Of a stretch of DNA of 64,000 nt, positions 6,124-33,723 are shown one piece after another; positions within the stretch are counted from its first letter, which is position 1, and every line of letters starts with the position of its first letter. The stretch covers positions 1 through 64,000 of the forward strand of contig JAAUZD010000043.1 in the NCBI GenBank assembly GCA_014804785.1, in the 5' to 3' direction. The notes under the pieces are model-generated. The model made no database searches and was not told the DNA's origin. It saw nothing but the letters and a program-made list of their open reading frames with translations. A program made the translations under genes and the position numbers. This DNA comes from Lachnospiraceae bacterium. GTDB taxonomy: Bacteria; Bacillota; Clostridia; Lachnospirales; Lachnospiraceae.

Positions 6124-7308
6124 ATGGAATTAACACGAAATATATTAGAAGATAGTAAAAATATCATTATTTATGGAGCGAGTGTATATGGGGAACTTGC
6201 GCTTCGTGGGTTAGAAATGCTGGGTAAAACGCCAATCTGTTTTGCAGATCGTGCAAGGGCAGGGAGGGACTATCTGGGATATCCAGTTATTAAGCCGGAA
6301 GACCTCGTTAATCACAGGCAGAATTTAATATTGATTGCCAGTGCAGATTTTTATTATGAGATTCTTAATTTTTTGGAAGGATTAGACTGCGAGAATATAT
6401 ATGATATCTCTTTGCTGCTTCAGCAACCGATAGATTTAGATAAAGTATCCCACAGAGCAAAAGAAATGTATGATGCAAGGGAAAACTATTTTAAAGCGGC
6501 GAAAGGAACTGATCTTACTATTGTTCATCTTGGGTTCTGTGTATCTGAAAGATGTTCATTGAAGTGTAAGGATTGTTCTTTCTTAATGCAATACTATCAG
6601 CATCCACAGAATATAGATTTGGAATTGTACAAACCGGCATTAGACAGATTTATTGAAACTATTGATTATATTTCAGAATTCAGAATATATGGTGGAGAAC
6701 CGTTTATGAATCCTGACATGTACAAATTGTTGGAATGGTATAAGGAATGTGAGAAGATAAACACACTATCTATATATACAAATGGGACGATTATACCTAA
6801 CGCACACACTCTTGAGAGTATGAAAAGTAAGAAGGTTAAAGTTCATATATCCGATTATGGACACAATATGAATAAGGTGGATAAGCTTGTAAAAGTATTA
6901 GAGCAAGAAGGGATTACTTACTTTATACGTAAATATGATACATGGTGCAACGCAGGAGATCTATCGCCAAAAAATCACACAAGGCAGAAACTTGAAGAAA
7001 TATATAGTAATTGCTTTGCCACTAATTGCTATTCTTTTTTGAAAGGCAAATTTTATGCTTGTCCAAGGGCGGCACATGCGGTGAATCTTGAAGCTATGCC
7101 GGATGTAGTACAGGATAGGGTAGATTTTAATAATGAGAAACTCAGCATAGAGCAATTACAGCAACAGCTTAGAGAACTGATGCACAATAGAAAATATATT
7201 GCAGCATGTGCATACTGCGATGGATTAGATAATCACGTTGCAGGGGTGAAACCGGCAGTTCAGATTAGGGAACCATTAGAGTATAAGAGGATTGCAGATA
7301 ATGGATAA
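6124..7308 (+). CDS. Radical SAM protein with N-terminal Rossmann-like domain
   Basis: Residues about 12-100 form the recurring Rossmann-like domain of this locus (IIIYGASVYGE, then a loop with YPVIKPEDL). Residues from about 134 form a radical SAM domain with the cluster-binding C144-x3-C148-x2-C151 in CSLKCKDCSF, followed by the IYGGEPFMNP segment typical of SAM binding. Additional Cys residues near the C-terminus (CYSFLKGKFYACP and CAYCDG) could bind a second Fe-S cluster. The substrate is unknown. Because it sits between the glycerophosphotransferase and a glycosyltransferase, a role in glycan or polymer modification is inferred. The downstream gene overlaps its last 8 bases. Confidence 0.8.
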   Translation: MELTRNILEDSKNIIIYGASVYGELALRGLEMLGKTPICFADRARAGRDYLGYPVIKPEDLVNHRQNLILIASADFYYEILNFLEGLDCENIYDISLLLQQPIDLDKVSHRAKEMYDARENYFKAAKGTDLTIVHLGFCVSERCSLKCKDCSFLMQYYQHPQNIDLELYKPALDRFIETIDYISEFRIYGGEPFMNPDMYKLLEWYKECEKINTLSIYTNGTIIPNAHTLESMKSKKVKVHISDYGHNMNKVDKLVKVLEQEGITYFIRKYDTWCNAGDLSPKNHTRQKLEEIYSNCFATNCYSFLKGKFYACPRAAHAVNLEAMPDVVQDRVDFNNEKLSIEQLQQQLRELMHNRKYIAACAYCDGLDNHVAGVKPAVQIREPLEYKRIADNG

Positions 7309-8428
7309 AGCGAAACTTAAAGTGCTTCAATTTTCTATAGCATCATCAATGGGTGGAAGAACGAGGTACATATTAGAAAACTGGAAATATATTGACCATG
7401 AAAAGTTTCAATTTGACTTCGTAACATTTAGCAAAGATATTGCAGTTGAAAATGAACTGATTCAGCAAGGGTGTAAAGTGCACCATTTCCCATGTTATCC
7501 TAAAGAGAATGAAGAGTTGTTTATTGCAGCATGGAATAAAATATTGGATGAGGGATATGATATTGTTCATTTGAATACAAGTTATTGGGATGGATTTTTG
7601 CTTGAGGAATGTGCATATAAAAAAGGTGTTAAGAAAATTATTGTGCATTCACACAATACGGGAGTAGGTAAGCAGTTATCAGACGAGGAACGCGAAAAAA
7701 TTGTTCGCAATCATTTTGAATTACAGAAGACATTAGATTTTAATAAGATTACTGAGTTTTGGGCATGTTCCAAGGCAGCATCAAAATGGTTGTTTGGGGA
7801 ACGAATTAATGAAAATAAAATATTTATTACGTATCCCACAATTTGTGCAAGGGATTATATTTTTGATGAGCAAAAGAGGAATGAATGCAGAACAACTCTG
7901 GGAATTGGAAATGAGTTTCTTATAGGGACAGTGGGGCGTATAGTCTATCAAAAAAACCACGGCTTTTTATTAGAGATTTTTGCACATGCATTCAAGCATG
8001 ATAAAAATGTAAAATTACTTATTATAGGTAGAGGCGAGCTGGAAGCTGACTTGAGAAGCTTGGCAGTTGAATTAGGGGTGGTGGATCAACTTATAATTGT
8101 TAATTCCTGTGAAGATATTGTGCCCTATTATCATGCGATGGACTTGTTCGTTTTACCTTCTTTATATGAAGGGTTTCCTAAGGTGGTACTAGAGGCGGCG
8201 GCATCAGGATTAAGATGTTTGTGCAGCAACACCATTACTGACGAGATAGAATTTAGTGATTTAATAAAGAGAATACCTTTAGAAAAAACACTGTGGGAAA
8301 AGGAATTTTCCTGCTCTATGAAAAGAACGGAGTGTAATCGTAAACATGCAATAGATTTATTATTACAATCGGGGTTTGACCTTACTAAAGAGATTAGACG
8401 TATTGAAAAAAAATACATGGAAAATTGA
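7301..8428 (+). CDS. Glycosyltransferase family 4 (GT-B fold)
   Basis: The N-terminal acceptor domain begins VLQFSIASSMGGRTRYI. The C-terminal donor domain has GTVGRIVYQKNHGFLLE and the hallmark E-x7-E region in LPSLYEGFPKVVLEAAASG. A TTG at 7292 is in frame, but the ATG at 7301 has AGAGG at good spacing and overlaps the preceding stop codon (ATGGATAA). About 375 residues, normal for the family. The sugar donor cannot be told from the sequence. It is followed by a short decayed methyltransferase-like stretch. Confidence 0.88.
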   Translation: MDKAKLKVLQFSIASSMGGRTRYILENWKYIDHEKFQFDFVTFSKDIAVENELIQQGCKVHHFPCYPKENEELFIAAWNKILDEGYDIVHLNTSYWDGFLLEECAYKKGVKKIIVHSHNTGVGKQLSDEEREKIVRNHFELQKTLDFNKITEFWACSKAASKWLFGERINENKIFITYPTICARDYIFDEQKRNECRTTLGIGNEFLIGTVGRIVYQKNHGFLLEIFAHAFKHDKNVKLLIIGRGELEADLRSLAVELGVVDQLIIVNSCEDIVPYYHAMDLFVLPSLYEGFPKVVLEAAASGLRCLCSNTITDEIEFSDLIKRIPLEKTLWEKEFSCSMKRTECNRKHAIDLLLQSGFDLTKEIRRIEKKYMEN

Positions 8429-8490
8429 CAACGGAGGTTACACATTGGAAATGGAAAATATACATTAGTAGAATCATTTTTGGAGGATGA

Positions 8491-8823: not shown

Positions 8824-9910
8824 AAGAGTAGAAACAATTAAATCTTCAAAAGAGAAAGGGATGCATAACGTAGTATACATTGTTCCATCGTACTATAGCC
8901 AGTCTGTCAGATATAGGGCAGAGAATATGGTGAATATTATAACTACCTTGCCAGATTGGAATGCTACGATATTTGAGACGTTTAATGTTAAAATAACGCA
9001 TAATTGTTTGGATTATATAGATGTAATTATTTTTATAAGAACTAGATATGATGAGTTGGAAGAGTTTATATATGAAATTAAGAAAAAGAAACTTCCGGCT
9101 TATTATGATATTGACGATTTTCAGTTTAGTAAAGATTGCATGTCACCAAAAGAGATGGGAAACACAATCGCAGATATTAATTTACAGTATCAGAAGTTGG
9201 CAACGCTATGTGATGGCTTTATAACGACTACTTCTTTTCTTAAAACAAACATTGAAAACTTCTATCGAAAAAAAACCTACCTTATAAAAAACTTTATGAG
9301 TTATGATCAAGAGTGTATTGCAAGAAGGTATTTAGAAGAAAAATGTAATAATCTGTCATCTGAAATAGATGACTATTTTTGCTTGGGGTATTTTGCTAGC
9401 AAGTCACATTTTAGAGACTTAGAAATTATATCAAGTGATGTGGCAGCTTTTTTAATGCGGCACGAAAAAACAATGTTACGAATTATTGGTGTCGAAAAGG
9501 TCCCAGATTCCTTAAAAAAAGAAGAAATTAAAAACAGGGTTAAAATATTTCCTTTTATGGATGGCAATACGTTGATGAAGGAATTTGCAGAGATTGATTT
9601 GAATTTGATTCCATTGATTATGGATGATTATTCACAGGCAAGATCTGAAATTAAATATTTTGAGGCAGCGATGGTAGGGACGATGTCACTGATGTCTCCG
9701 ACTGATGTATATTGTGAAATTATCAGTAAAGGAAACATTGGCAGAATATGTAAAGATAATAAATGGTTAGATAGCATAGAAGAAATATATGAAGAGAGAA
9801 AAGGATTAAAAAGAAATATGCCCTTTTTATTTAAGGAGGCACAAGATGGGTATGGAGCGGACTCGCGAAAAAAAGAACTTGAAATAATGCTGAATGAGGT
9901 TATAGGCTAA
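8759..9910 (+). CDS. Glycosyltransferase, GT-B-like, possibly 5'-truncated by a frameshift
   Basis: A 383-residue protein with a GT4-like layout. An N-terminal half includes VVYIVPSYYSQSVRYRAEN and the acidic YYDIDDFQFS. A C-terminal half includes FCLGYFASKSHFRDLE and ends with IKYFEAAMVGTMSLMSPT, which corresponds to the donor-site region. The first 20 or so residues look like a continuation of the upstream frame rather than a natural N-terminus, and no ribosome binding site precedes the ATG. The gene ends at TAATG shared with the next start, so downstream coupling is intact. Confidence 0.65.
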   Translation: MYSFNAVGKKYEMYKENNPLYKRVETIKSSKEKGMHNVVYIVPSYYSQSVRYRAENMVNIITTLPDWNATIFETFNVKITHNCLDYIDVIIFIRTRYDELEEFIYEIKKKKLPAYYDIDDFQFSKDCMSPKEMGNTIADINLQYQKLATLCDGFITTTSFLKTNIENFYRKKTYLIKNFMSYDQECIARRYLEEKCNNLSSEIDDYFCLGYFASKSHFRDLEIISSDVAAFLMRHEKTMLRIIGVEKVPDSLKKEEIKNRVKIFPFMDGNTLMKEFAEIDLNLIPLIMDDYSQARSEIKYFEAAMVGTMSLMSPTDVYCEIISKGNIGRICKDNKWLDSIEEIYEERKGLKRNMPFLFKEAQDGYGADSRKKELEIMLNEVIG

Positions 9911-10470
9911 TGAAGATGTTTCTATGGGGAACGGGGATTGTTGCTAAAGAAATTTGCGATATCATAATAATAGAATATATTACGGCTTTCGTGGAGACTA
10001 ATCCAAAAGAAAAGGAATTTTGTGGAATTCCTATTATTAGACCGGAATGTATAGAACTAGGGAATGAAGACCTTTTGATAGTTGCAGTGGCAAATGCAGT
10101 GATAATTGAGAGTTATATTAATGAGCGTCTTAATTTATCTGAAAAAAATATATTATTTTACAGGCTTGATGGATTGAGCAATCCGTTACATTATGCTGCT
10201 AAATATGGAAAGTTAATTCCTTATATGAAAGAAGACTGTTTTGAAAGTATGCTAAAAAAAATGAATGTGGATGCAATGCTATACAATTCTCAGTTTATAT
10301 GTGAGATATGTGAGCAAAATGGATTTGAATATCCTTTTGATTTTGATGAAGGTATTGGATTTTTGAATACTGATAGTTTAAATCACAAGCTAGATTATAA
10401 CTTTATTCCTGATTTGCAAAATATATGGTGTGGGGATTGGTATAAAAAAAAATATGATATTCAAATCTAG
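9910..10470 (+). CDS. Rossmann-like domain protein with unrecognised C-terminal half
   Basis: Residues 1-90 are the recurring domain of the locus: MFLWGTGIVAKEI, then GIPIIRPECIELG and LLIVAVANAVIIESYI. The C-terminal about 95 residues contain LHYAAKYGKLIPYMKEDC and two Cys and Trp clusters and match no family I know. The first base of its ATG is the last base of the preceding stop codon, indicating co-translation. The protein may be a stand-alone version of the appended domain, or the front end of a longer protein lost by deletion before the heptose operon, which starts 92 bases later. Confidence 0.5.
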   Translation: MKMFLWGTGIVAKEICDIIIIEYITAFVETNPKEKEFCGIPIIRPECIELGNEDLLIVAVANAVIIESYINERLNLSEKNILFYRLDGLSNPLHYAAKYGKLIPYMKEDCFESMLKKMNVDAMLYNSQFICEICEQNGFEYPFDFDEGIGFLNTDSLNHKLDYNFIPDLQNIWCGDWYKKKYDIQI

Positions 10471-10562: not shown

Positions 10563-11549
10563 ATGATAATTACAAAAACTCCATTCAGAGTAAGCTTTTG
10601 CGGTGGCGGTAGCGATATGCCGGATTTTTATAGAGAAAATGGCGGATGTGTTCTTAGTACAACAATAAATAGATATATGTATTTAACCATCCATCCATAT
10701 TTTGATGAAAAAAAAACAGCTCTTCGCTACTCTCAGATAGAAGTAGTTGATGATATTAAGAAAATTAAACATTCCATTTTCCATCGGGTTCTTAATGATA
10801 TGAATGTCAGTGGAGTAGAGATTAGCAGTACTGCAGATATACCAAGTGGGACGGGACTGGGGTCTTCCAGTGCATTTACAGTTGGATTGTTACATACTTT
10901 ACACTGTTATCAAGGGAAATTTGTGTCTAAAGAGAAAATAGCAGCAGAGGCATGTAATATAGAAATTGAAAAGTTAGGAAATCCAATTGGCAAGCAGGAT
11001 CAATATGCTTCTGCGTGTGGCGGATTGAATTTTATTGAATTTAATAAAGATGATTCAGTTACAGTTTCACCGCTAATATTGAGATCAGATTTAAAATCTG
11101 AACTTGAAAACAATTTGATTATGTTTTATACGGGCATTACACATGATGCAAATGTAATTCTTGCGGAGCAAAAGAAAAATATAATTTCACAGGATGATAA
11201 AACAAAAAACTTAATAGTTATGTGTAATCTTGCAAGAGATATAAAGGCTTCGCTGGAGGCAGGAGAACTTTCTGATTTTGGTGAAATTCTAAATGAAGGT
11301 TGGATGCGTAAACGAGAGTTGGCAAGTGGTGTGTCCAATACGAGGATAGATGAGTTGTATGAGACGGCGATGGCAAATGGGGCAACAGGTGGTAAATTGC
11401 TCGGTGCAGGTGGTGGTGGATTTTTACTATTCTATTGCGAAAAGGAAAAACAAAAGAAATTGGAAGAGGCAGTGGGATTAAAACAGTTTATTTTTGAGTT
11501 TGAGAATGACGGAACATCCATAGCATATATAGGAAACAAGTATTGGTAG
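10563..11549 (+). CDS. hddA: D-glycero-alpha-D-manno-heptose-7-phosphate kinase (GHMP kinase)
   Basis: Phosphorylates D-glycero-D-manno-heptose 7-phosphate at C1 in the GDP-heptose pathway. The N-terminus KTPFRVSFCGGGSDMPDFY matches the HddA type of GHMP kinase. The ATP-binding glycine/serine loop is PSGTGLGSSSAFTVG, and the C-terminal GHMP motif is GATGGKLLGAGGGGF. Its 328 residues are as expected. GGAGATAATAAA precedes the ATG. It is the first gene of a compact four-gene set whose other members fit the remaining steps of the same pathway, which supports this substrate over galactose or mevalonate kinases. Confidence 0.88.
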   Translation: MIITKTPFRVSFCGGGSDMPDFYRENGGCVLSTTINRYMYLTIHPYFDEKKTALRYSQIEVVDDIKKIKHSIFHRVLNDMNVSGVEISSTADIPSGTGLGSSSAFTVGLLHTLHCYQGKFVSKEKIAAEACNIEIEKLGNPIGKQDQYASACGGLNFIEFNKDDSVTVSPLILRSDLKSELENNLIMFYTGITHDANVILAEQKKNIISQDDKTKNLIVMCNLARDIKASLEAGELSDFGEILNEGWMRKRELASGVSNTRIDELYETAMANGATGGKLLGAGGGGFLLFYCEKEKQKKLEEAVGLKQFIFEFENDGTSIAYIGNKYW

Positions 11550-11564
11550 AAGGACAAGCTGAAA

Positions 11565-12512
11565 ATGAAAATTTTAGTTGCTGGTGGAGCAGGATTTATA
11601 GGAAGTAATTTAATTGATTTATTCTTGGAAAAAGGTAATGAAGTAGTCTGCATTGATAATTATTTTATTGGAACGAAGAAGAATATAGAACACTTGGTCA
11701 ACGACCCTAATTTTGTTATGTATGAACAGAATTTGTGTGATTTGGAGGCGGTTTCACAGATTTTCGCGAAGGAAAACATAGAGTATGTAGTTCATCTGGC
11801 GGCAAATTCTGATATACAGGCTAGTGCGAAAAATCCCATTATTGAGTATCAGAATACCTACACAACTACATTTAATCTTCTTGAATGTATGAGATTGCAT
11901 GATGTAAAAAAGATGTTTTTTGCATCAACTTCTGCAGTTTATGGAGAGAAAACAGATGAATTGTTGACGGAAACGACAGCAGATTTGTGCCCTGTTTCCT
12001 ATTATGGAGCATGTAAATTGGGATCCGAGGCGTTGATTTCGGCTTATAGTCATATGAATGATTTAGAAGTACTTATATTCCGTTTCCCCAATGTTATTGG
12101 TCCAAGATTAACGCATGGTGTAATCTTTGACTTTATTAAAAAGTTGGAAAGTGATGATTCACAGTTGGAAATTCTTGGGGACGGAACACAATGTAAGCCA
12201 TATATATATGTATTGGATCTTGTTGAAGCTATTGTTCGTTTTATGAATACTGAGACAAAAGGTGTTACACTCTATAATTTAGGAGTGGAAGGTGCAACAA
12301 CTGTAACACGAATTGCGGACATAATTTGTGAAAAAATGGGACTCTGCAATGTAAAATATAACTATACGGGTGGGAACATTGGTTGGAAAGGTGATGTGCC
12401 GAGATTTCAGTATGATCTTAGTAAAATATACGCAACTGGATGGCGGGCATCATGTAACTCTGATGAAGCTGTAGCAAAAACGGTAGAAGTTGTTCTTCAT
12501 AGCAGAGAGTAA
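11565..12512 (+). CDS. NAD-dependent epimerase/dehydratase (extended SDR)
   Basis: The NAD-binding motif is VAGGAGFIGSNLIDLF at the N-terminus. The catalytic Ser-Tyr-x3-Lys appears as STSAVYGE and YYGACK. RFPNVIGPRLTHGVIFDF and PYIYVLDLVEAI are typical of GalE-like and dehydratase-like SDR enzymes. About 315 residues. Its place between hddA and the hddC-gmhB fusion suggests action on a heptose or GDP-heptose, as epimerases do in Campylobacter capsule loci, but a role on another nucleotide sugar of this glycan is equally compatible. Confidence 0.85.
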   Translation: MKILVAGGAGFIGSNLIDLFLEKGNEVVCIDNYFIGTKKNIEHLVNDPNFVMYEQNLCDLEAVSQIFAKENIEYVVHLAANSDIQASAKNPIIEYQNTYTTTFNLLECMRLHDVKKMFFASTSAVYGEKTDELLTETTADLCPVSYYGACKLGSEALISAYSHMNDLEVLIFRFPNVIGPRLTHGVIFDFIKKLESDDSQLEILGDGTQCKPYIYVLDLVEAIVRFMNTETKGVTLYNLGVEGATTVTRIADIICEKMGLCNVKYNYTGGNIGWKGDVPRFQYDLSKIYATGWRASCNSDEAVAKTVEVVLHSRE

Positions 12513-12526
12513 AGTGAGGTGATACT

Positions 12527-13828: not shown

Positions 13829-13858
13829 TATTTGTGAGTAGGTACTCAGAGGCATATT

Positions 13859-15861: not shown

Positions 15862-16218
15862 GTGTGCAAGATTAACATCTATACAAAGGTTTCAATTGCA
15901 AGTTTTCTAAAACAAGATAATGTTAAGAGAGTTGCGATTTATGGTTATGGCGTAATAGGGAAAAAACTTTTAGATGAGTTGATAAAAGAACATATTAGAG
16001 TAGAATATATGGTGGATAAAGCTGAAACATATCAAGATAATAATATTATAGTATATCGGCCTGAAGATGATTTACCCTCAGTTGATATTATGATAGTCAC
16101 CCCTATTTTTGCTTATTCGGAAATAAAACAACAGTTTTGTAAGAGAAATATGAATATTGCTTCATTAGGGGAAATTATCGATACTTTGTTGAGGGACGTA
16201 ATTGAATACGTTGAATAA
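15862..16218 (+). CDS. Stand-alone Rossmann-like domain protein
   Basis: A 118-residue frame starting GTG, with VKRVAIYGYGVIGKKLLDEL, a VEYMVDKAE strand, VYRPEDDLPSVDIMIVT and a C-terminal ASLGEIID. It closely resembles the C-terminal domain of the WbsX-like protein at 20.0 kb (IYGCGILGKHLL ... ILSLAEILYE). It lacks any catalytic partner and follows insertion-sequence debris without a clear ribosome binding site. It may therefore be the surviving tail of a glycosyltransferase whose front was lost, or a genuine small accessory protein. Confidence 0.5.
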   Translation: MCKINIYTKVSIASFLKQDNVKRVAIYGYGVIGKKLLDELIKEHIRVEYMVDKAETYQDNNIIVYRPEDDLPSVDIMIVTPIFAYSEIKQQFCKRNMNIASLGEIIDTLLRDVIEYVE

Positions 16219-16371: not shown

Positions 16372-17529
16372 ATGCAATCATTAGTATCGGTAATTATGCC
16401 GACTTATAATAGAGGGATGACTATAAAACGTTCAATAGATAGCGTTTTAAAACAATCATATGAAAAGATAGAATTAATAATTGTAGATGACGGTTCGTCA
16501 GATAATACAACAGAAATAGTAAAATCCTATCATGATGGAAGAATAAAACTGATAAGTCTGGATAGAAATTCAGGTGCTAATGTTGCAAGAAATAAAGGAA
16601 TAAATGTTGCTAAAGGGAAGTACATAGCATTTCAGGATAGTGATGATGAATGGTTGGAGAATAAGCTTGAGATTCAAATAAAATATATGGAGGAAACAGG
16701 TAAAAAAGTTTGTTATTGCCCATACATTTTATTTAATAATGGGGAAGTGAAGGTTATTCCTAGCCACGCGGACAATAGAGTTTTATTTGAAGAGAAGATA
16801 CAAGAGACATTGCGAAAAGGAAATGTGATATCTACGCAGACACTTGTTATTCATAAAGAAGTTGTTTTAAGCGTTGGGATGTTTGATGAATCATTATATA
16901 GGTTGCAAGACTATGAGTTTGTCATTCGGATATGTCAGCAATATAAAATAGGATATATAGACAAGCCCTTGGTCAATGTATACAGAATGAGCGACAGCAT
17001 ATCAAGTAATAGGCTAGCACTTGCAGATGCGTGCAAAAAAATACTAATTAAGCATACTGAATTTGTTGATTTTAAAAGTGTTTTGCATTTATATTTATTT
17101 AATTGCAAATGGTATGATACACAAAAGATATATTGGGAATACTTAGAGGAAATGTTGACAATAAAAAGAAATGGAATGACAAAAGAAAATATTGATTTTG
17201 CTATCCAGATTAAGAGCGACATGTCTAAATGGCATACTTATTTAAAAAAAAATATTATAAAAAAGAAATTCTCAATATATGGCGCGGGTAATTATGGCAA
17301 AGGAGTATATTATACTTTAAAGAATATGGGACTTACCCCTCAATGTTTTTGGGTTACACATAGACAGAAAGAAAATAGAATAGACCAAATTCCTGTCTTA
17401 GAATTGCCAAGTGAAATGGGCAATGAATTATCTGTTATAATAGCAATTAGTAAAGATAGACAAGAAGAATTGTGTGAGAATTTGCTTAGCAGAGGATGTA
17501 CAAACTATTATGTCTACCCTTTCTGCTAG
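16372..17529 (+). CDS. Glycosyltransferase family 2 with C-terminal Rossmann-like domain
   Basis: The GT-A domain (about residues 1-230) has VIMPTYNRGMTIKRSIDSVL, VDDGSSDNT and the metal-binding QDSDDEW. After a helical linker, residues about 298-385 form the locus-specific domain: FSIYGAGNYGKGVYYTL, then IPVLELPSE and VIIAISKDRQEEL. GGGAGATGAG precedes the ATG. The gene is isolated between the IS30 remnant region and the IS4 remnant, suggesting an individually acquired or shuffled glycosyltransferase. Confidence 0.88.
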   Translation: MQSLVSVIMPTYNRGMTIKRSIDSVLKQSYEKIELIIVDDGSSDNTTEIVKSYHDGRIKLISLDRNSGANVARNKGINVAKGKYIAFQDSDDEWLENKLEIQIKYMEETGKKVCYCPYILFNNGEVKVIPSHADNRVLFEEKIQETLRKGNVISTQTLVIHKEVVLSVGMFDESLYRLQDYEFVIRICQQYKIGYIDKPLVNVYRMSDSISSNRLALADACKKILIKHTEFVDFKSVLHLYLFNCKWYDTQKIYWEYLEEMLTIKRNGMTKENIDFAIQIKSDMSKWHTYLKKNIIKKKFSIYGAGNYGKGVYYTLKNMGLTPQCFWVTHRQKENRIDQIPVLELPSEMGNELSVIIAISKDRQEELCENLLSRGCTNYYVYPFC

Positions 17530-20021: not shown

Positions 20022-21515
20022 ATGAAAAGAATAAAGCCGATAGCAATGTATCTACCGCAGTTTCATAGAACGAAGGAAAATGATGAATGGTGGGGAGAGG
20101 GTTTTACAGATTGGGTATCTGTAAAGGGAGCTACAGCACTTATGGAAAACCATATGCAACCGAGAGAACCGTTAAATGATAACTATTACAATTTGCTTGA
20201 TAAAAAGACGATGGAATGGCAGGCATCATTGGCAAAGCAATATAGTATATATGGATTTTGCTTTTATCATTATTGGTTCAAAGACGGAAGAAAAGTTCTG
20301 GAAAAACCAGCTGAAAATCTTTTGAAGTGGATTGATATTGATATGAAATTCTGCTTTTCGTGGGCAAATGTGACATGGGCGCAGACTTGGAGCAAGCTTA
20401 CCAGTATCAATAGCTGGGCACCACAATATGAAGCTGATGATTTGCGGAAAAAATATGAAAATGGTGTCTTGTTGGAGCAAAAATATGGAAGAGAAGAAGA
20501 ATGGATAAAACATTTTAATTATTTACTTCCGTTTTTTAAGGATTCAAGGTACATTAGAATTGAAGGGAAACCGCTTTTCGTTATTTACCGGGCAATGGAC
20601 ATGCCTGCAGTACAGCCAATGTTACGCTTATGGAATGAGCTTGCAAGAGAAAATGGACTACCGGGTATATATGTAATTGCAGAATTTTGTAATGAATATA
20701 GCTCAGAAATTGACGCATGCATGCGTCATGAACCAGAGGTTTCACGGGGGGTTATTAGGTCGCGTTATCTTGCAAGTGGGAAAAGTACATTGGCATTAGA
20801 TTATGATGAGGTGTATGAAGTAGCATTGAGCGAGAAGAAGGATAATATGTTTGGCAAAAAATTTTTGATGTGTTTTACGGATTTTGATAATACACCAAGA
20901 AAAGGAAAGAACGGAGAAATATTAACAGGAGTTACGGTAGATAAATTTGAAAAATATTTTTCTGAGGAAGTCAAAAAAAGTCGGGAGTGGGGGAATGAAT
21001 ATATTTTTATAAATGCATGGAATGAATGGGGAGAAGGGATGTACCTTGAACCGGATAAGAGATATAATTATGGTTTTTTGGAAGCTGTTAATAGAGTTGT
21101 AAATGCAGATATGGAGTCTAATCGGGAAGCATCATCATCAAGACCGAATAGTTATATGGCTAACATGAAATGCCTTGATAAGTGGCTTTATATAAATGAG
21201 GAAGGGAAAAAACTGGCTGATTATTTAATTGATTCTAATTGTAAAGAAGTGGCGATATATGGATGCGGTATATTAGGGAAGCATCTTCTGGTTGAATTAG
21301 AAAAAACCGAGGTTAATGTGAAATATATAATAGATAAAAAACGGAGTGGTAAAATAGGCTCTATAGACATTATTGGTATAGAGGAACCCTTTGAGAAGGT
21401 AGACGCCATAATTGTTACCCCAACATGGGATTTTAATAGGATTGAAGAGGAATTGGCATCGAAATTTGAAGGAAGAATATTGTCACTGGCGGAAATTCTT
21501 TATGAAATGTATTAA
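20022..21515 (+). CDS. WbsX-like glycosyltransferase (GH99-like) with C-terminal Rossmann-like domain
   Basis: The N-terminal about 375 residues match the WbsX / glycoside hydrolase 99-like family found in O-antigen and capsule loci: IAMYLPQFHRTKENDEWWG, GFTDWVSVKGA, FCFYHYWFKDGR, FSWANVTWAQTW and INAWNEWGEGMYLEPD. Residues about 405-497 add the recurring domain (VAIYGCGILGKHLLVELE ... VDAIIVTPTWDFN). AGGAGGATTTGAT precedes the ATG. Proteins of this family are thought to act on polysaccharide chains, and the precise linkage is unknown. Confidence 0.87.
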   Translation: MKRIKPIAMYLPQFHRTKENDEWWGEGFTDWVSVKGATALMENHMQPREPLNDNYYNLLDKKTMEWQASLAKQYSIYGFCFYHYWFKDGRKVLEKPAENLLKWIDIDMKFCFSWANVTWAQTWSKLTSINSWAPQYEADDLRKKYENGVLLEQKYGREEEWIKHFNYLLPFFKDSRYIRIEGKPLFVIYRAMDMPAVQPMLRLWNELARENGLPGIYVIAEFCNEYSSEIDACMRHEPEVSRGVIRSRYLASGKSTLALDYDEVYEVALSEKKDNMFGKKFLMCFTDFDNTPRKGKNGEILTGVTVDKFEKYFSEEVKKSREWGNEYIFINAWNEWGEGMYLEPDKRYNYGFLEAVNRVVNADMESNREASSSRPNSYMANMKCLDKWLYINEEGKKLADYLIDSNCKEVAIYGCGILGKHLLVELEKTEVNVKYIIDKKRSGKIGSIDIIGIEEPFEKVDAIIVTPTWDFNRIEEELASKFEGRILSLAEILYEMY

Positions 21516-25416: not shown

Positions 25417-25461
25417 TGTGGATTGTTTTATACAGTATACAGAGAAGGAGGTGCAATTTTA

Positions 25462-27663
25462 GTGGAAAATTTATATTTTGGATTAATATCTTGGATGAGT
25501 TTTGATGATTCGGCTTCTATCTTATTACTTGGCAATGCCAAAGAATATAATGATTATTTTACAAATATGAAATGTCGGGTATGTTGTGCTTCCTCTGATG
25601 AAATCTGTATGGACACTTTTCAAAAAGAATATGCATCTTCATTTGATTGTGCTATAGGTATAGAAATACTGGAAAAAGAAGCAGTGCCTAATAAACTGCT
25701 TAATATAATAAAAATACTTTTGAAGCAGCAAGGGAAACTCTTTCTTGGGACAGATAATCGAATAGGGTTGAGGTATCTTTGCGGTGAAGTGGATCCATTT
25801 ACGCAAAGGTGTTTTGATGGTCTGGATAATTATGCTACATACTTGTCTGATAAAAGAAAGACTCAATTATCGGGAAGATGCTATACGAAAGCTGAATTAA
25901 AACATTTTTTAATGGGAGCGGGGTTTAATTCTAAATTTTATTCAGTGTTACCATCATTGGAAACTCCTCAGCTAATAATTGCGGAAGATTACACTCCTGC
26001 GGAAAGAATTGCAGCGAGGTATATGCCGATGTATCGAAACCCGGACACTGTTTTGTTCTGTGAGGAACAGATTTGTGATGATTTTGCTCGTAATAATGCA
26101 CTGCATTCAGTGGCAAATGCTTTTTGGGTTGAGTGTATTTTAGATGATTGCTTTATGGATGTGAAACAAGTAACTCTTTCATTAGATCGGGGAGAGGAAA
26201 ATGCCTATTCAACCGTTATTCGTTCTAAAGAAGTGGAAAAGAAAGTGGTATTTGAAAAGGGGCGGAGCAATCTGGAAAAACTAGTTCAAAACATGCAACG
26301 CTTACAGAAACAAGGAATTTCAACAGTCCTAGGGAAACAAAAGGGTGAATCTTATATAATGCCATATGTAAATGCAATGCATGGAGATGTTTATTTGCGA
26401 AATTTGCTTAGAACAGATGCAGATGAATTTCTAAAGTGTATGGACTATTTCAGGGAATTGATTATACGATCTTCAGAACATGTATGTGAGAACGAGCAGG
26501 GAATTATTTTGAAAAATGGTTATGTAGATATGATTCCACTCAATAGTTTCTATCAAAATGGGGAATTTATTTTCTTTGATCAGGAATTTTGCATTCAAGA
26601 CTATCCGGCAAATGCAATTCTATGTAGGGCGATTGTTAGCTTATATGAACAGGTTCCAAAGAATGAAATTTTGGTTCCAAGAGATTATATGTGGGAACGT
26701 TATGGATTAATAAAACAACTTAATTATTGGGATAAAATTACTAGAGAATTTATGAATGGATTGCGAAGGCGAGAGAAGGAGAGAACATTTTACGATGCTC
26801 ACATGCGAAATGAATGGGTTACAAACTATAATAGACAGCGATTGGATGATACGGTGAATAAGATGGACTTCTATGAAGAATATAGGCGTAATAGTTGCTT
26901 TGAAGATTTGTATGATAAAAAGATCTTTTTGTTTGGAGCGGGAAAATGGTGCGATAAGTTTTTAGCGTTTTACAAAAGTGATTACAATATTTGCTGTATT
27001 TTAGATAATGATGAAAGCAAGTGGGGAACTGAGTTGCATGGAGTTCCTATTGTATCACCGGATAGTTTGGTTGGCGAAAAAGCTGCGTATAAAGTGATTA
27101 TCTGTGCAAAAAATTACAAACCAATTTTTCGGCAGCTGAAAAGAATGAACGTGATGCACATTGGAATTTATGATGCAAATTATTTTTATCCTGGCAGGCA
27201 GATGTTGAATATTGTTTCTTCTGGCGATACAAATAAGAAATATCGAATTGGATATTTGTCAGGAACTTTTGATTTGTTTCATATAGGGCATATTAATATG
27301 CTGCGTCGTGCGAAAGAACAGTGTGAGTATTTGATTGCAGCAGTTACATCGGATGAATATGTTAGAATACATAAAGATAAAGAACCAATTATTCCATTTG
27401 AAGAGAGAGTTGAAGTGCTGAAAGCTTGTAAGTATGTAGATGAAGTTGTAGGAGTTCCGGTAAATTATGCTGGGACGGTTGAAGCCTTTCAAAAATATCA
27501 TTTTGACTGCCAATTTTGTGGAAGCGATTATGCGAATGACGCGTGGTGGCTGCAACAAAAAAAGTTTTTGCAGTCTCATGGCTCCGACTTGGTATTTTTT
27601 TCTTATACTGAGCAGACAAGCTCTACGAAAATACGATCTTTAATTGATAAAGGTCTCTTGTGA
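25462..27663 (+). CDS. Four-part fusion: methyltransferase-like, kinase-like, Rossmann-like, glycerol-phosphate cytidylyltransferase-like
   Basis: A 733-residue protein. Residues 1-180 resemble class I methyltransferases (FDCAIGIEILEKE, KLFLGTDNRIGLRYL, GRCYTKAELKHFL), but the glycine-rich SAM motif is degraded to LLLGNAKEYND. Residues about 230-470 carry YVDMIPLNSF and FIFFDQEF, like the catalytic and metal loops of kinase/APH-like folds. Residues about 497-590 are the recurring domain (FLFGAGKWCDKFL). The last 125 residues are a TagD-like cytidylyltransferase with intact GTFDLFHIGH and TSSTKIR. The GTG at 25462 was chosen because AGGAGG at 25446-25451 precedes it. A TTG frame extends 13 codons upstream. 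Confidence 0.8.
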   Translation: MENLYFGLISWMSFDDSASILLLGNAKEYNDYFTNMKCRVCCASSDEICMDTFQKEYASSFDCAIGIEILEKEAVPNKLLNIIKILLKQQGKLFLGTDNRIGLRYLCGEVDPFTQRCFDGLDNYATYLSDKRKTQLSGRCYTKAELKHFLMGAGFNSKFYSVLPSLETPQLIIAEDYTPAERIAARYMPMYRNPDTVLFCEEQICDDFARNNALHSVANAFWVECILDDCFMDVKQVTLSLDRGEENAYSTVIRSKEVEKKVVFEKGRSNLEKLVQNMQRLQKQGISTVLGKQKGESYIMPYVNAMHGDVYLRNLLRTDADEFLKCMDYFRELIIRSSEHVCENEQGIILKNGYVDMIPLNSFYQNGEFIFFDQEFCIQDYPANAILCRAIVSLYEQVPKNEILVPRDYMWERYGLIKQLNYWDKITREFMNGLRRREKERTFYDAHMRNEWVTNYNRQRLDDTVNKMDFYEEYRRNSCFEDLYDKKIFLFGAGKWCDKFLAFYKSDYNICCILDNDESKWGTELHGVPIVSPDSLVGEKAAYKVIICAKNYKPIFRQLKRMNVMHIGIYDANYFYPGRQMLNIVSSGDTNKKYRIGYLSGTFDLFHIGHINMLRRAKEQCEYLIAAVTSDEYVRIHKDKEPIIPFEERVEVLKACKYVDEVVGVPVNYAGTVEAFQKYHFDCQFCGSDYANDAWWLQQKKFLQSHGSDLVFFSYTEQTSSTKIRSLIDKGLL

Positions 27664-29032: not shown

Positions 29033-29037
29033 ATAAA

Positions 29038-29766
29038 ATGAGTAAAGTTGCTTTGGAGTTAAAGCATGTAAGCATAAACTATAAAGATTTGTCGCATATG
29101 TCATTACACCAAAGCCTTGCTAAAGATGGTGTAAAAAAGGCGAATATAGTTCATGCTGTGCGGGATATATCTTTTTCGGTAAACCAAGGAGAAATATTAG
29201 GAATTGTAGGACGGAATGGTTCTGGGAAAAGCACATTATTAAGGTCTATAGCAGGTATTTTTCAACCAGATGAAGGAATTATTGACACAAAAGGGAACAG
29301 AGTTTCTCTTATGGCCATTGGAATAGGGTTTAATAGCAACAATACCGGTCGTGAAAATATTTTAAAGTCGGGAATGCTCTTAGGGTGTGACTTGAATTAT
29401 GTTAAAGCTCATATGGAGGAAATTATAGAATTTTCTGAATTGGGTGATTTTATTGATAGGCCGGTTCGAACTTATTCTTCGGGTATGTATTCTAAGCTGT
29501 CTTTTGCAGTAACAGCGATTCTTGATACGGATATAATGCTGGTGGATGAAGTACTTTCAGTGGGGGACGAGCGTTTCCGTAAAAAGAGTTATAAAAAAAT
29601 GGAAGAATTGATGTTGTCAGATAGGACAGTCTTGATTGTTTCTCATGCTACAGATACGCTGAAAAAGTTCTGCAATAAAATATTGTGGATTAATGATGGT
29701 CAGTATATAATGTTAGGGGAAACAGAAGAAGTATTGAATGAGTATGATAAGTTTATGCAACTGTAG
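29038..29766 (+). CDS. ABC transporter ATP-binding protein for polysaccharide export (TagH-like)
   Basis: Walker A is GRNGSGKST, the signature is YSSGMYSKLSFAV, and Walker B is DIMLVDEVLSVGD, with the switch His in VSHATDTL. The RfbB/TagH-type insert between them (ENILKSGMLLGC) is present. At 242 residues it lacks the C-terminal glycan-binding domain that some O-antigen ATPases have, consistent with a teichoic-acid-type exporter that does not recognise a chain-end cap. It is next to the permease gene, so the two form the exporter. Confidence 0.92.
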   Translation: MSKVALELKHVSINYKDLSHMSLHQSLAKDGVKKANIVHAVRDISFSVNQGEILGIVGRNGSGKSTLLRSIAGIFQPDEGIIDTKGNRVSLMAIGIGFNSNNTGRENILKSGMLLGCDLNYVKAHMEEIIEFSELGDFIDRPVRTYSSGMYSKLSFAVTAILDTDIMLVDEVLSVGDERFRKKSYKKMEELMLSDRTVLIVSHATDTLKKFCNKILWINDGQYIMLGETEEVLNEYDKFMQL

Positions 29767-29789
29767 CCGCTTATAGATGGAGGGATTGT

Positions 29790-32060
29790 TTGATAGCCGT
29801 TAATACAGCGTTTTATAAAAAAAATAAGGATTCGGATAGATTAATTACTGGAATTGCGAGAGTCATAGATGGGTATATACGAGCAATTGATAAAGAAGCG
29901 TGTGATGAAACTCTTATGTATGATTCACGAGAAGAAGTTAAACTTCATTTGGGGTCGGAACGTCGCTCAACAATATCATGGTATCCTTTTGAAAAAGGGA
30001 GTACCGTACTTGAAGTTGGAGGGGAGTTTGGTGCGATTACCGGGGAAATTTGTGATAAAGCTTCCCGGGTGGTGGTGACCGAGACCTCCCTTTTTCGTGC
30101 TAAAGCTATTGGTGAAAGATATAAGAACAGGGAAAACTTGGAAATATATGCCGGTGATGTAATGGATATGGAATTTCCATATCATTTTGATTACATTATT
30201 ATTATGAATATAGTAGATAAGATTGGAAACCATGCAGTAGCAGACGGACCATATTTAAGAGCCTTTGAGCATTTACAGAAGTTCTTAAAAGAAGATGGGA
30301 AACTTTTTCTTGCAGATGAGAATCTTTACAGTATTAGTCGATGTCAGCAAAGTAACGGATCTTTGAATCCATGGAATCACACTAGGTGTTTGCATAAAAA
30401 GCAGATAGTATCTTTTTTAGAGCAATCAGGATTTCCATTTACTAAGTTTTATTACCCGCTACCAGATTATCACCTTGTTGGAAGAGTATATACTGATGAA
30501 ATGTTACCTACTGCAGTAGAGTGGAACTGTTTGGCTAATTTTAATCGAGGAGATCAGAACTTTCTTGCATCCAATATGGATTTAAGCATAAGGCTTACTG
30601 AAAATGGCATGTTCCCGTTTTTAGCACCTGCTTTTTTTATTGAAGCAGGAAGAAAGGACAACATGTCAGAAATAAAAAAGGTGGATGTTCTATTTGATGA
30701 TAGTTATGAACTTCCTTTGCTGGGATTTGATTGGGCACAGCATGGCTATAGTTCTTTGCTTGAAGCTATTGAAAAGTATAGGCAAAAAAATGAAGAGTCT
30801 TCTAATGGGATAAGTCAATATGGGCAGCAAGAACGTCTAAAATCGGCGGTTCTTAAGATTGACCAGGATAATGTGATTTTAGAAAAGGTGCTGGAAGTAG
30901 AATTTGATCTTCTTAGAAAACTGAAGCAGGTTTGTGATGCCCATGGATTGCAATTGTATGCTATGTATGGGACGCTGCTCGGTGCAGTCAGGAATGCAGG
31001 TGTTATTCCGGGAGATGATGATATTGACGTTGCGTTATCAAGAGAAGATTATAACAAACTTCTTACATTAGAGAGCGAATTTACAGATCAGTATTTCCTG
31101 CAGACTCCAGCCAATGATGAATGTTTTTATGGAGGATATATAAAACTTCGAAATAGAAATACCACAGCTATTCATCCCAAAAACTGGTGGGTAAACTGTT
31201 GTGAAGGGATTGGAATTGACATATTTCCAATGGATAGTGGGTTTAATGATCCCGTTAAGGAACAGAAGAAGCAGAGAAGGATAATGCATTTGCAAAGATT
31301 GTTGTATGCTAAAGCATATGGATTTTTTTCGCATTTTATGGATATGAAGCTGTTAGAGTGGAAATGCTACAAGTACGTTGGGAAATTATTCTCTAGGGAG
31401 AAACTTGCAGATAAGTTAAATGATGCATTGGCAGCAAACGACGGGAGCGAATCTGCACCATTTGGTATTTATACACACTATATTGGAAATAAAGGACCAA
31501 AATGGCTAGATAGAAAAGCATTTTCAGAATCTATTGTTTTTTCATATGATGGTATTAGACTTTTAGTGCCGACAGGTTGGGATAAAATTTTACGTATGTT
31601 ATATGGGGATAATTATATGCAACCTTATCCTTGGCGCGAAAGGAAGTATAGACATGGTTTTTATGATGTAGAATTATCATATCAAATACATAAGGCACAT
31701 TTTAGAGGACTATTTCATCCGGTCCCGGAAGCTGCACAAGAGATTGTTTTGTTTGGAGATGGTCTTTTATACGAAGCATATTTTGAAAAGTATGGAAATA
31801 AGTATGCTCCGTCAACTATTGTTTCATTAACAGATACCTTAGTAGAAAAGCAGATTCATGGTGTTACGGTAAAGACAATGGGGGAGTTCCAGCAGTCGAT
31901 GCCGAACAATATTTATCCCGTTATTTGTGCTATTGATATCCGCAGAGCACAAAAAAAAGTGCAAGAGGCAGGAATTCAGAATTATTATGTATTCCTAAAA
32001 GTCAGAGAATGGATTTTATTAGCCAATTATACATATGCATTAAGCGAGTTAGAAAAGTAG
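29790..32060 (+). CDS. Fusion of SAM methyltransferase, LicD phosphotransferase and Rossmann-like domain
   Basis: A 756-residue protein. Residues about 65-220 are a class I methyltransferase with motif I VLEVGGEFGAITGEI and IYAGDVMDMEFP. Residues about 370-640 are a LicD-family domain: YAMYGTLLGAVRNAG and IPGDDDIDVALSREDYNKL supply the nucleotidyltransferase-fold Gly-Ser/Thr and Asp-x-Asp motifs. Residues about 650-756 are the recurring domain with a weaker glycine motif (IVLFGDGLLYEAYF). LicD proteins attach phosphocholine or alditol phosphate to glycans. The TTG start follows GGAGGG at ideal spacing and no ATG lies nearby. Confidence 0.85.
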   Translation: MIAVNTAFYKKNKDSDRLITGIARVIDGYIRAIDKEACDETLMYDSREEVKLHLGSERRSTISWYPFEKGSTVLEVGGEFGAITGEICDKASRVVVTETSLFRAKAIGERYKNRENLEIYAGDVMDMEFPYHFDYIIIMNIVDKIGNHAVADGPYLRAFEHLQKFLKEDGKLFLADENLYSISRCQQSNGSLNPWNHTRCLHKKQIVSFLEQSGFPFTKFYYPLPDYHLVGRVYTDEMLPTAVEWNCLANFNRGDQNFLASNMDLSIRLTENGMFPFLAPAFFIEAGRKDNMSEIKKVDVLFDDSYELPLLGFDWAQHGYSSLLEAIEKYRQKNEESSNGISQYGQQERLKSAVLKIDQDNVILEKVLEVEFDLLRKLKQVCDAHGLQLYAMYGTLLGAVRNAGVIPGDDDIDVALSREDYNKLLTLESEFTDQYFLQTPANDECFYGGYIKLRNRNTTAIHPKNWWVNCCEGIGIDIFPMDSGFNDPVKEQKKQRRIMHLQRLLYAKAYGFFSHFMDMKLLEWKCYKYVGKLFSREKLADKLNDALAANDGSESAPFGIYTHYIGNKGPKWLDRKAFSESIVFSYDGIRLLVPTGWDKILRMLYGDNYMQPYPWRERKYRHGFYDVELSYQIHKAHFRGLFHPVPEAAQEIVLFGDGLLYEAYFEKYGNKYAPSTIVSLTDTLVEKQIHGVTVKTMGEFQQSMPNNIYPVICAIDIRRAQKKVQEAGIQNYYVFLKVREWILLANYTYALSELEK

Positions 32061-32079
32061 ATAGAGAGGTTTTGGGCAC

Positions 32080-33723
32080 ATGGATTCAGGTATGGAGAAC
32101 GGTAAATATAAAATAGGATACTGTATGGGTGTTTTTAGTGCTGAGCATATAGAAATGTATGGATGGCTTAAGAAGCAGGCTAAGTTATGCGATAAATTTA
32201 TATTAGGTATTCCAGATGAATGGGTCAGGGCGCGTATTTTTGGAGATACGAGACCGTATAATGCCGAGAAGGCAAAAATATCTTTGATGAACAGGGGCTG
32301 GTTCTATGATGTAGTGATTTTGGATGCTGAGCATCTTAGCTATAAGAAGATTTATGAAAAACTTCAATTTGATGTGTGCTTTTACGGGACAGAGTATGGT
32401 TTAACCTTTGAAGAAGACAAGCTTTTCTTGATGGAGCGTGGCGTTTCATTTATTTCTCTAATGCCGGAAAAACATATTAAAATTACTGGTGGTGGATCAT
32501 TAAGACTTCCCATTGAAGACTTACAGAAAAATCAAAAGATTATTCTTTTTGGAACTGGAATTTATTTTGATATTTATATAAATGAATACGCTATATTAGG
32601 GGAGAGATATTTGCCTGCGTATGCTATTGATAATGATTCTGCTAAATGGAATACTGAGAAAAATGGTGTCAAAATAATGGAACCATCAGTCTTGTTAAAG
32701 GAAAAAGCGGAGGATATATTAGTTGTCATTTGTAGTAAGAATTATGGAGATATGCTTAAGCAATTGCGGGGATTGGGTAAATTCAACTATCGTACATTGC
32801 GATTTGCAAATGAAATTTCCCTGTTGGAGGAGTTTGCAATTACTTCAGCAGAGGAGAGAGTGTATCTAAAAAAATCGCATGACATATTAGTTACCCTTAT
32901 GGATGAGTTTGATAAGGTATGCAGGGAAAATCATCTGCATTACTATATTATATGTGGATCACTAATTGGTGTTATTAGACATAAAGATTTGATACCTTGG
33001 GATGATGATATAGATCTTGCGATGCCAAGGGAAGATTTTAAGAAACTAAGAAAAATTGCAAAAAAGAAATGGTCTAAGAAGAATGATACTTTCATGTATC
33101 TTGATTATGATGATTTGGGGGGAGGTGCCTTTCTTGATTGTATGCCTAGGCTTTTTTATATGAAAGAGAGTTTGCCGACCAAGTGCTTCGATAAAGTATA
33201 TGGGAAAGCAACGGCTGATGTGGACAATAGAATGTTTTTGGACATATATGTTATGGATAATGCTCATGAAAATGAGAGGGTTCATATGTTCACTATTAAT
33301 ATGATGAAAGGGATTTATAATTTATGTATGGGGCATAGGGCAAACATCAATTATAATGAATATAAGGCGATAGTCCCGGATAGTACGATTAGACTGATGA
33401 AAGCTATCCATACAATAGGAAAGTTTTTGCCATTAAAGTTCTTAACATTTTGGTATGATCTTTTGGCACAAAGTGCTAATCATAATAAAAGATGTAGAGA
33501 TTATATTATGAGTTCCTGCGCAATCAGATGTATAGAACTCAAGTACCCCAAAGAGCACTTTGGAGAAGGATTAAGACTTCCGTTTGCAGATATTGAAGTT
33601 ATGGTGCCATCTAACTATGATGAACAGCTAAAAGCAATGCGATATAATAATTATATGGAATTTCCAAGGATGTCAGTAAGAAAACCTTCACATTATTTTA
33701 ATTCTGATATAGAAATTTGGTAA
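32080..33723 (+). CDS. Fusion of degenerate cytidylyltransferase-like, Rossmann-like and LicD domains
   Basis: A 547-residue protein. Residues about 8-135 follow the TagD fold plan (KIGYCMGVFSAEHIEMYGWL ... VCFYGTEYG), but the catalytic HxGH is replaced by EHIEM and the terminal SSTxIR by ITGGGSLRLP, so catalysis is unlikely. Residues about 145-255 are the recurring domain (IILFGTGIYFDIYI). Residues about 265-547 are a LicD domain with YIICGSLIGVIRHKDLIPW followed by DDDIDLAMPREDF. It sits last in the exporter segment, before a new promoter. Confidence 0.82.
   Translation: MDSGMENGKYKIGYCMGVFSAEHIEMYGWLKKQAKLCDKFILGIPDEWVRARIFGDTRPYNAEKAKISLMNRGWFYDVVILDAEHLSYKKIYEKLQFDVCFYGTEYGLTFEEDKLFLMERGVSFISLMPEKHIKITGGGSLRLPIEDLQKNQKIILFGTGIYFDIYINEYAILGERYLPAYAIDNDSAKWNTEKNGVKIMEPSVLLKEKAEDILVVICSKNYGDMLKQLRGLGKFNYRTLRFANEISLLEEFAITSAEERVYLKKSHDILVTLMDEFDKVCRENHLHYYIICGSLIGVIRHKDLIPWDDDIDLAMPREDFKKLRKIAKKKWSKKNDTFMYLDYDDLGGGAFLDCMPRLFYMKESLPTKCFDKVYGKATADVDNRMFLDIYVMDNAHENERVHMFTINMMKGIYNLCMGHRANINYNEYKAIVPDSTIRLMKAIHTIGKFLPLKFLTFWYDLLAQSANHNKRCRDYIMSSCAIRCIELKYPKEHFGEGLRLPFADIEVMVPSNYDEQLKAMRYNNYMEFPRMSVRKPSHYFNSDIEIW

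What the first reader, a model, noticed from the sequence alone, without database searches (positions are those of the whole stretch)
6124..33723. One small Rossmann-like domain appended to eleven different proteins in a single locus
A segment of about 85-100 residues with a first strand and glycine loop of the form IYGxGxxG, a second strand ending near a possible ribose-binding acidic residue, a GxPVI-type turn and a third strand of the form IIIAxS occurs in eleven proteins. They are at 6.1 (N-terminal), 9.9, 15.9 (alone), 16.4, 18.8, 20.0, 21.6, 24.1 (all C-terminal), 25.5 and 32.1 (central) and 29.8 kb (C-terminal). The catalytic partners belong to unrelated families: GT2, WbsX, RgpF, LicD, radical SAM, methyltransferase and cytidylyltransferase. 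The fold looks like the N-terminal half of PglD/NeuD-type or CoA_binding-type domains. A shared appended domain may tether the enzymes to one scaffold or nucleotide-sugar pool, or act as a common regulatory or docking device. That function is inference.
Basis: partly seen in the sequence, partly recalled or inferred. Interest (0 to 1): 0.8.

Follow-up and report, generated by a model that had tools for sequence, protein, structure and literature searches.

The report
Shared Rossmann tail on glycan enzymes
In some gut and rumen bacteria, many of the enzymes that build and decorate a surface sugar polymer carry the same small nucleotide-binding-type domain, and some loci also encode a probably membrane-anchored copy of it alone, which suggests a common switch or docking device.

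Summary
All eleven segments belong to one domain family: 11 of 11 match a model of 99 copies from outside the window at E <= 7.8e-8, against 0.17 for the best of 10,000 shuffles. A relative modelled here is a compact Rossmann fold (pLDDT 88). Among the solved structures compared, the closest are the N-terminal part of 2g6t, the NAD(H) domain of Rex, and 3nkl, the N-terminal domain of a CapD-type dehydratase.

It is not special to this locus. In hit-bearing regions of 17 genomes of the genus, 276 of 428 ORFs inside the hit spans carry it, with partners in 60 BLAST-level clusters and up to 44 matches per genome. Copies follow their catalytic partner, not their locus, so the eleven are not a local expansion.

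New here: recurrent stand-alone copies with a hydrophobic N-terminal helix, often directly beside a tail-less glycosyltransferase gene.

Best reading, inferred: a nucleotide-binding regulatory and assembly module, working like the DUF of WbaP but spread over a whole pathway. Ligand and partners were not tested. My literature searches found no description of such pathway-wide use.

The parts
6154..6417 (+). domain copy 1, N-terminal in a radical SAM protein (ORF 6124-7308); IYGAS loop
   Evidence: E 1.6e-15; partner PF04055
9910..10170 (+). domain copy 2, N-terminal in a 186-residue ORF (9910-10470) whose remainder is unassigned
   Evidence: weak; E 2e-9
15913..16176 (+). domain copy 3, alone (ORF 15862-16218, GTG start); lacks the hydrophobic helix of other stand-alone copies; lies after what looks like insertion-sequence debris
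   Evidence: (E 3.1e-15)
17251..17526 (+). domain copy 4, C-terminal in a GT2 (ORF 16372-17529); V class
   Evidence: (8.7e-19); partner PF00535
19728..19994 (+). domain copy 5, C-terminal in a GT2 (ORF 18765-20009)
   Evidence: 1.4e-10
21234..21497 (+). domain copy 6, C-terminal in a WbsX glycosyltransferase (ORF 20022-21515), preceded by a linker helix shared with the stand-alone copies
   Evidence: 1.8e-16; linker E 3.6e-4; PF14307
22720..22983 (+). domain copy 7, C-terminal in an RgpF-type protein (ORF 21646-22986); V class
   Evidence: (1.5e-18); PF05045
25150..25413 (+). domain copy 8, C-terminal in a GT2 (ORF 24136-25416); V class
   Evidence: (2.3e-20)
26905..27180 (+). domain copy 9, central in a 746-residue protein (ORF 25423-27663): weakly methyltransferase-like start, unassigned middle, domain, cytidylyltransferase
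   Evidence: 5.7e-24; 10 orthologues
31728..32003 (+). domain copy 10, C-terminal in a methyltransferase-LicD protein (ORF 29790-32060); the most divergent of the eleven
   Evidence: fails; 7.8e-8; PF04991
32518..32808 (+). domain copy 11, central in a LicD protein with a cytidylyltransferase-like start (by eye) (ORF 32080-33723)
   Evidence: 3.9e-17; PF04991

Best explanation
The segment is a compact nucleotide-binding-type Rossmann domain. It is appended to many enzymes that build or decorate a surface glycan. I think it binds a nucleotide (NAD(H), or a uridine or cytidine nucleotide) in the glycine-loop pocket. Through ligand-dependent self-association it then regulates and co-assembles the enzymes at the membrane, much as the DUF of the initiating transferase WbaP binds UMP/UDP/UTP and holds the WbaP dimer together. 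In some loci a stand-alone copy with a membrane helix would supply the module in trans to a neighbouring tail-less glycosyltransferase. SHOWN: homology of the eleven, fold of a relative, partner diversity, conserved glycine loop and acidic residue, stand-alone copies beside tail-less GTs, absence from the epimerases tested. INFERRED: ligand, self-association, membrane location, regulation.
Against: No ligand and no oligomer was tested. 41 of 264 copies (three of the window's eleven) have V in place of the strand-2 Asp. The second Asp that reads uracil in PglD-type domains is mostly N, S or K here, so uridine may be wrong. Several partners (radical SAM, FkbM, deacetylase) should release no NDP, so simple product feedback does not cover all. 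Copies of one contig are no more alike than copies of different contigs (20.4% against 20.2%), so there is no sign of a locus-specific interface. Stand-alone anchored copies were found by profile in only 10 of the 23 high-copy genus genomes (an eleventh, G031, by inspection), and seven of the ten had given rows to that profile. The upstream-neighbour test is weak, uncorrected, and its rows are not independent. The hydrophobic helix is poorly predicted in the model (pLDDT 56-58).
Confidence: 0.4

Rival explanations
1. Pure docking device: the tails bind each other or a membrane-anchored stand-alone copy and recruit otherwise soluble enzymes to the growing chain; the pocket is a fold relic.
For: Stand-alone copies with a hydrophobic helix; a subgroup of nine, picked because they look alike, is 60% identical on average, all nineteen 36%, copies in general about 20%. 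They abut tail-less GTs. They share a linker helix with WbsX tails. Of 571 other carriers 517 have no 19-residue stretch with mean hydropathy >= 1.6, 48 reach 1.6-1.9 and 6 reach 1.9. Epimerases 0 of 36.
Against: Pocket residues are among the most conserved positions. Anchored copies were not found in many high-copy genomes such as G025 with 38 matches. No within-locus similarity.
Confidence: 0.25
2. Private substrate-binding module: each tail holds the nucleotide part of its own partner's donor, as the N-terminal domain of PglD-type acetyltransferases does.
For: PglD_N is the Pfam family matched by most members (25 of 110 at E <= 0.01). PglD-type N-domains bind UDP. Domain distances follow catalytic distances in five of the six partner clusters tested.
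Against: GT2 and LicD catalytic domains have their own donor sites (established knowledge). Partners include enzymes without NDP donors. Tail-less homologues exist (GT2: 19 of 86 in genus loci). The PglD Ser and second Asp are not kept.
Confidence: 0.17
3. Passive structural module: a dimerisation or stability tag spread by gene fusion, without ligand or signal.
For: Great variety of partners and positions: C 127, N 108, middle 23, alone 6 of 264.
Against: Conserved glycine loop and Asp; bias to glycan-assembly enzymes; zero of 36 epimerases in domain-bearing loci.
Confidence: 0.12

Closest known systems
WbaP / large phosphoglycosyl transferase DUF (PF13727, CoA_binding_3)
   Same: Related by profile (WbaP chains E 6.3e-5 to 6.9e-5). 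An accessory domain in glycan assembly that is stabilised by UMP/UDP/UTP and carries most dimer contacts (PMC10942596, passages).
   Different: There it is one domain in the initiating enzyme (and, by homology, in PglF-like dehydratases); here it sits on many enzymes of a pathway. PF13727 itself is not among the Pfam matches.
PglD_N (PF17836), N-terminal domain of PglD/NeuD/VioB acetyltransferases
   Same: Similar motif order (glycine loop, Asp, GxPV turn); 25 of 110 copies match at E <= 0.01.
   Different: None of the eleven reaches the curated cut-off. The uracil-reading Asp and loop Ser are mostly absent. No hexapeptide beta-helix match in the window's carriers.
Rex C-terminal NAD(H) domain
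   Different: No DNA-binding domain found in the eleven; partners are mostly glycan enzymes.
N-terminal domain of 2g6t (C. acetobutylicum) and Pfam C2185-like_N (PF22674)
   Same: Highest structural Z, 11.7, rmsd 2.2, 89 residues (rows within 1 Z are tied). PF22674 passes its cut-off in one carrier with DUF4422, L053:14059-15540. That both names stand for CAC2185 is my inference.
   Different: PF22674 matches only 4 of 110 copies at E <= 0.01 and was not reported for any of the eleven window proteins.
CapD/PglF-type dehydratase N-terminal domain (3nkl)
   Different: There (recalled) part of a membrane-bound dehydratase.

Membership tests
PglD_N (PF17836) | score over the curated cut-off (23.4 bits) | tested here: not met
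   0 of 11 window proteins; best 19.1 bits in ORF 16372
PglD_N (PF17836) | Asp-Asp pair at the end of strand 2 (ribose, uracil) and Ser in the glycine loop | tested here: not met
   first Asp 77% of 264; next position N 38, S 16, K 15%; loop position G 86, S 5% against the residues in PMC8040287
PglD_N (PF17836) | UDP-sugar binding | not testable with these tools
   needs biochemistry
CoA_binding_3 / WbaP DUF (PF13727) | match to PF13727 | tested here: not met
   absent from the Pfam matches of the 11 window proteins at E <= 1 (ten) or 0.1 (one) and of 110 copies at E <= 0.01
CoA_binding_3 / WbaP DUF (PF13727) | sequence relationship to solved WbaP chains | tested here: met
   E 6.3e-5 to 6.9e-5 over 83 profile positions
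CoA_binding_3 / WbaP DUF (PF13727) | uridine nucleotide binding and dimerisation | not testable with these tools
   single-chain models only
Rex NAD(H) domain | glycine loop and strand-2 Asp aligned; same fold | tested here: met
Rex | N-terminal DNA-binding domain | tested here: not met
   no such Pfam match in the eleven proteins
C2185-like_N (PF22674) | score over the curated cut-off (27 bits) | tested here: not met
   not reported for the 11 window proteins; met in L053:14059-15540, 28.2 bits

The most novel reading that the evidence does not exclude
A pathway-wide adapter system for glycan assembly. One nucleotide-gated Rossmann module is fused to most chain-building and chain-decorating enzymes and also made as a membrane-anchored stand-alone copy, so that interchangeable enzymes plug into a common membrane complex. 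It would allow new glycan structures to be built by swapping tailed genes between loci.
Probability: 0.25. Interest if true: 0.85.

Novelty: new variant of a known kind. Interest (0 to 1): 0.62.

Why it matters
How the enzymes of one surface polymer are organised and regulated together is an open question. A single module on nearly two thirds of the ORFs in such loci (276 of 428), with up to 44 matches per genome, is an unusually clear lead. It is a small domain whose ligand and partners can be tested directly. It also gives a handle for annotating many 'hypothetical' glycan genes in Lachnospiraceae and Selenomonadaceae.

Tried and rejected
Chance similarity or a generic Rossmann match: rejected; the hits are sharply bimodal, 271 at E < 1e-3 and only 299 at E < 10.

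First iterative model: the model drifted to 198 columns and mixed in looser hits; I dropped it and used the fixed model.

First gene count: one search gave 282 carriers of 415 ORFs; a stricter removal of overlaps between fetched regions gave 276 of 428, which I use.

Recent local spread inside the window: rejected.

Tail absent from GT-B enzymes: a Pfam tally suggested it (GT1/4 in 2 of 118 carriers against 12 of 118 non-carriers), but a profile seeded with the window's GT4 found carriers in 11 of 23 and 17 of 21. I withdrew the idea.

Anchored stand-alone copy as a universal partner: rejected as universal.

Rows dropped for the stand-alone set: one search lists 29 short carriers with an N-terminal extension; I kept 19 with a hydrophobic or similar start, chosen by inspection, and dropped 2 duplicates (L072, L132) and 8 without such a start (L090_9229, L082_5494, L053_3011, L151, L128 and L104 at contig edges, L140_5254, L127).

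WbdD-type chain terminator for ORF 25423: considered from recall; no chain named WbdD among the 29 PDB matches.

Full N-terminal helix for the window's stand-alone copy: looked for upstream in three frames, not seen.

Literature: searches (listings seen) gave no description of this domain as a pathway-wide appendage; most subscription papers are not held.

Not done: fold of the weakest window segment (A7), Foldseek's own search, multimer models.
Full report
WHAT WAS CHECKED. Translation puts all eleven at the stated places: N-terminal in a radical SAM protein (6124), N-terminal in a 186-residue ORF (9910), alone (15862), C-terminal in GT2 (16372, 18765, 24136), WbsX (20022), RgpF (21646) and a methyltransferase-LicD protein (29790), and central in 25423 and 32080. 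A leave-one-out profile test supports nine strongly, 9910 weakly (E 1.3e-3) and does not support 29790 (0.46). Once many copies are known, all eleven score well against a model without any window sequence (worst 7.8e-8; best of 10,000 shuffles 0.17). That model's members were found with a profile that included the eleven, so the second test is not fully independent. No other window ORF matches.

LIGAND SITE. In 264 copies from 17 genomes the best-kept glycines are those of the loop (G 99%, G 86%, then G 58% / A 22%), with an Asp at the end of strand 2 (D 77%). These align with the NAD loop and Asp of Rex. 41 copies have V at the Asp position. This class includes 16372, 21646 and 24136; the D/V label changes only 8 times on the tree against a shuffled mean of 38. 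PglD-type domains read ribose with the first Asp and uracil with a second (PMC8040287, passages); the second is mostly N, S or K here. So nucleotide binding is likely, but its kind is open.

HOW WIDESPREAD. In the window's genome a model of the 110 finds 22 matches at E <= 0.01: eleven in the window, eight at contig C43:193.9-202.3 kb, and three single ones elsewhere, of which one has the size of Rex (253-residue frame) and one also passes the PglD_N cut-off. Only 5 of 39 GT2 matches of this genome lie in ORFs with the domain. Of 36 genus genomes (own included) 23 have nine or more matches, up to 44, and 13 have three or fewer; 24 genomes of other families of the order have at most four. These counts can include Rex. 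In a phylum-wide sample 291 of 398 genomes have a match at E <= 1e-4, but Rex and its like are among these and at most 13 candidates per genome were scored; 12 genomes besides the own have eight or more, in seven families. Named records with eight or nine copies in 22 kb include Dorea sp. 5-2, Selenomonas sp. ND2010 and Lachnospiraceae bacterium A4; there are 348 copies in 80 loci, and 18 loci have none. These loci were found through ORF 25423, so they are not a random sample. Two of them (L116, L132) repeat unnamed regions: 13 of 337 named carriers are identical to fetched ones.

PARTNERS. I fetched 40 regions of 17 genomes (own included) chosen because they had hits. Inside the spans from first to last carrier, 276 of 428 ORFs of at least 100 residues carry the domain; in the window it is 11 of 23 ORFs, three of the others being short or debris. 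The non-domain parts of 278 carriers fall into 60 clusters at BLAST level, 32 of them single proteins; some may be distantly related, and some are extensions of stand-alone copies. In 118 of 263 carriers (the eleven plus a random draw) Pfam shows GT2 (31), FkbM methyltransferase (8), radical SAM (7), WbsX (5), DUF4422 (5), Gly_transf_sug (5), cytidylyltransferase (4), RgpF, LicD, CDP-glycerol transferase, deacetylase (2 each) and others (first 25 of 42 families shown). In 118 of 127 non-carriers it shows GT1/4 (12), GT2 (9), epimerases (7), aminotransferases (5), NeuB (4) (first 25 of 88 shown). By profiles seeded from the window, carriers are 67 of 86 GT2 in genus loci and 86 of 104 in named loci with the domain, but 0 of 15 and 0 of 21 epimerases; LicD 9 of 15 and 8 of 20. 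In the 18 named loci without the domain there are 21 GT2, tail-less by construction. So the domain marks enzymes that build or decorate the chain rather than those epimerases. A GT4 profile found carriers in 11 of 23 and 17 of 21, so GT-B enzymes are not excluded.

EVOLUTION. On a FastTree tree of 264 copies, partner labels (213 copies in 19 clusters of three or more) change 69 times (100 shuffles: mean 128, minimum 122), while genome labels change 203 times (mean 198, minimum 187). Domain and catalytic distances correlate within the GT2 cluster (r 0.36, n 78), LicD/cytidylyltransferase (0.62, n 27), FkbM (0.64, n 20), radical SAM (0.75, n 18) and DUF4422 (0.89, n 9), each above all 500 permutations, but not within WbsX (0.11, n 6). 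Copies on one contig are as unlike as copies on different contigs (20.4% and 20.2%). The fusions therefore look old and travel as whole genes; the eleven are not a local expansion.

STAND-ALONE COPIES. Of 29 short carriers with an N-terminal extension I kept 19 by inspection; 2 were duplicates and 8 had no hydrophobic start. Sixteen of the 19 have a 19-residue stretch of mean hydropathy 1.6-2.65; three lie lower (0.97, 1.33, 1.47). A subgroup of nine look-alikes is 60% identical on average, all nineteen 36%. A profile of this N-terminal part finds such proteins in 10 of the 23 high-copy genus genomes (seven of the ten had given rows to it; G031's copy, seen by eye, was missed), and finds its linker helix before the tails of longer proteins, including the window's WbsX. 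Of 18 with an upstream gene on the same strand, 11 have a tail-less one, against 94 of 275 other carriers (Fisher p 0.039, one test, orthologous cases not independent); six of the 11 overlap it by 4 to 40 bases. Ten tail-less neighbours were scanned (eight of those 11, and two downstream ones); all are GT2 or GT4. This looks like a split form of the fused arrangement. The window's own stand-alone copy lacks the helix and follows what looks like insertion-sequence debris, so it may be truncated.

HOW IT MAY WORK. The best-studied relative in a similar role is the DUF of WbaP, which is stabilised by UMP, UDP and UTP, is destabilised by UDP-Gal, carries most contacts of the dimer, and is proposed to regulate the enzyme; UMP inhibits the full-length enzyme with an IC50 of 4.1 uM (PMC10942596, passages). 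For EpsZ, models suggest that a partner, EpsW, promotes contacts between the DUFs (PMC12802240, passages). I infer that the present domain does a similar job for a whole pathway: nucleotide-dependent regulation and assembly. Nothing here shows binding or oligomers.

NOVELTY. The fold and its relatives are known; one subset has a Pfam model (PF22674). I found no text describing the pathway-wide use or the anchored stand-alone copies, with the limits of that library.

Noticed in passing
window 10563-14446: GHMP-type kinase, SDR epimerase, nucleotidyltransferase fused to a HAD phosphatase and a SIS-type isomerase in a row: looks like a nucleotide-activated heptose pathway; none carries the domain. 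Only the fusion was scanned; the rest is by eye.
   Followed up: partly
window 1239-4049 and 33908-36735: An MBOAT gene with an SGNH-like neighbour at each end of the locus, as if it sits between two O-acylation modules (Pfam run on the first pair only: MBOAT met, SGNH below cut-off; second pair by eye).
   Followed up: partly
window 25423-27663: 746-residue protein with a weakly methyltransferase-like N-terminus, an unassigned middle with a conserved FDQE-type motif that recalls a kinase (recall only), the domain, and a cytidylyltransferase nearest to CDP-ethanolamine synthase (3elb, 6.8e-32). Ten orthologues aligned.
   Followed up: partly
window 27695-29766: ABC permease and ATPase pair (by eye), so export is probably ABC-dependent; neither carries the domain.
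   Followed up: no
window 14440-15860, 18129-18708 and 37240-38454: What looks like insertion-sequence debris and a transposase gene inside and beside the locus (by eye).
   Followed up: no
V class: window ORFs 16372, 21646, 24136 and 38 other copies: Subclass of 41 copies with V in place of the strand-2 Asp and its own pattern (GF.VS....N....G.PV); maybe a different ligand.
   Followed up: partly
L106:15447-17192, L143:4396-6090, L063:3982-5661: Proteins with two domain copies in tandem at the N-terminus; good subjects for testing tail-tail packing (for L063 only by the looser model).
   Followed up: no
L086:8473-11358: A DNA methyltransferase of restriction type lies inside a domain-bearing glycan locus.
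   Followed up: no
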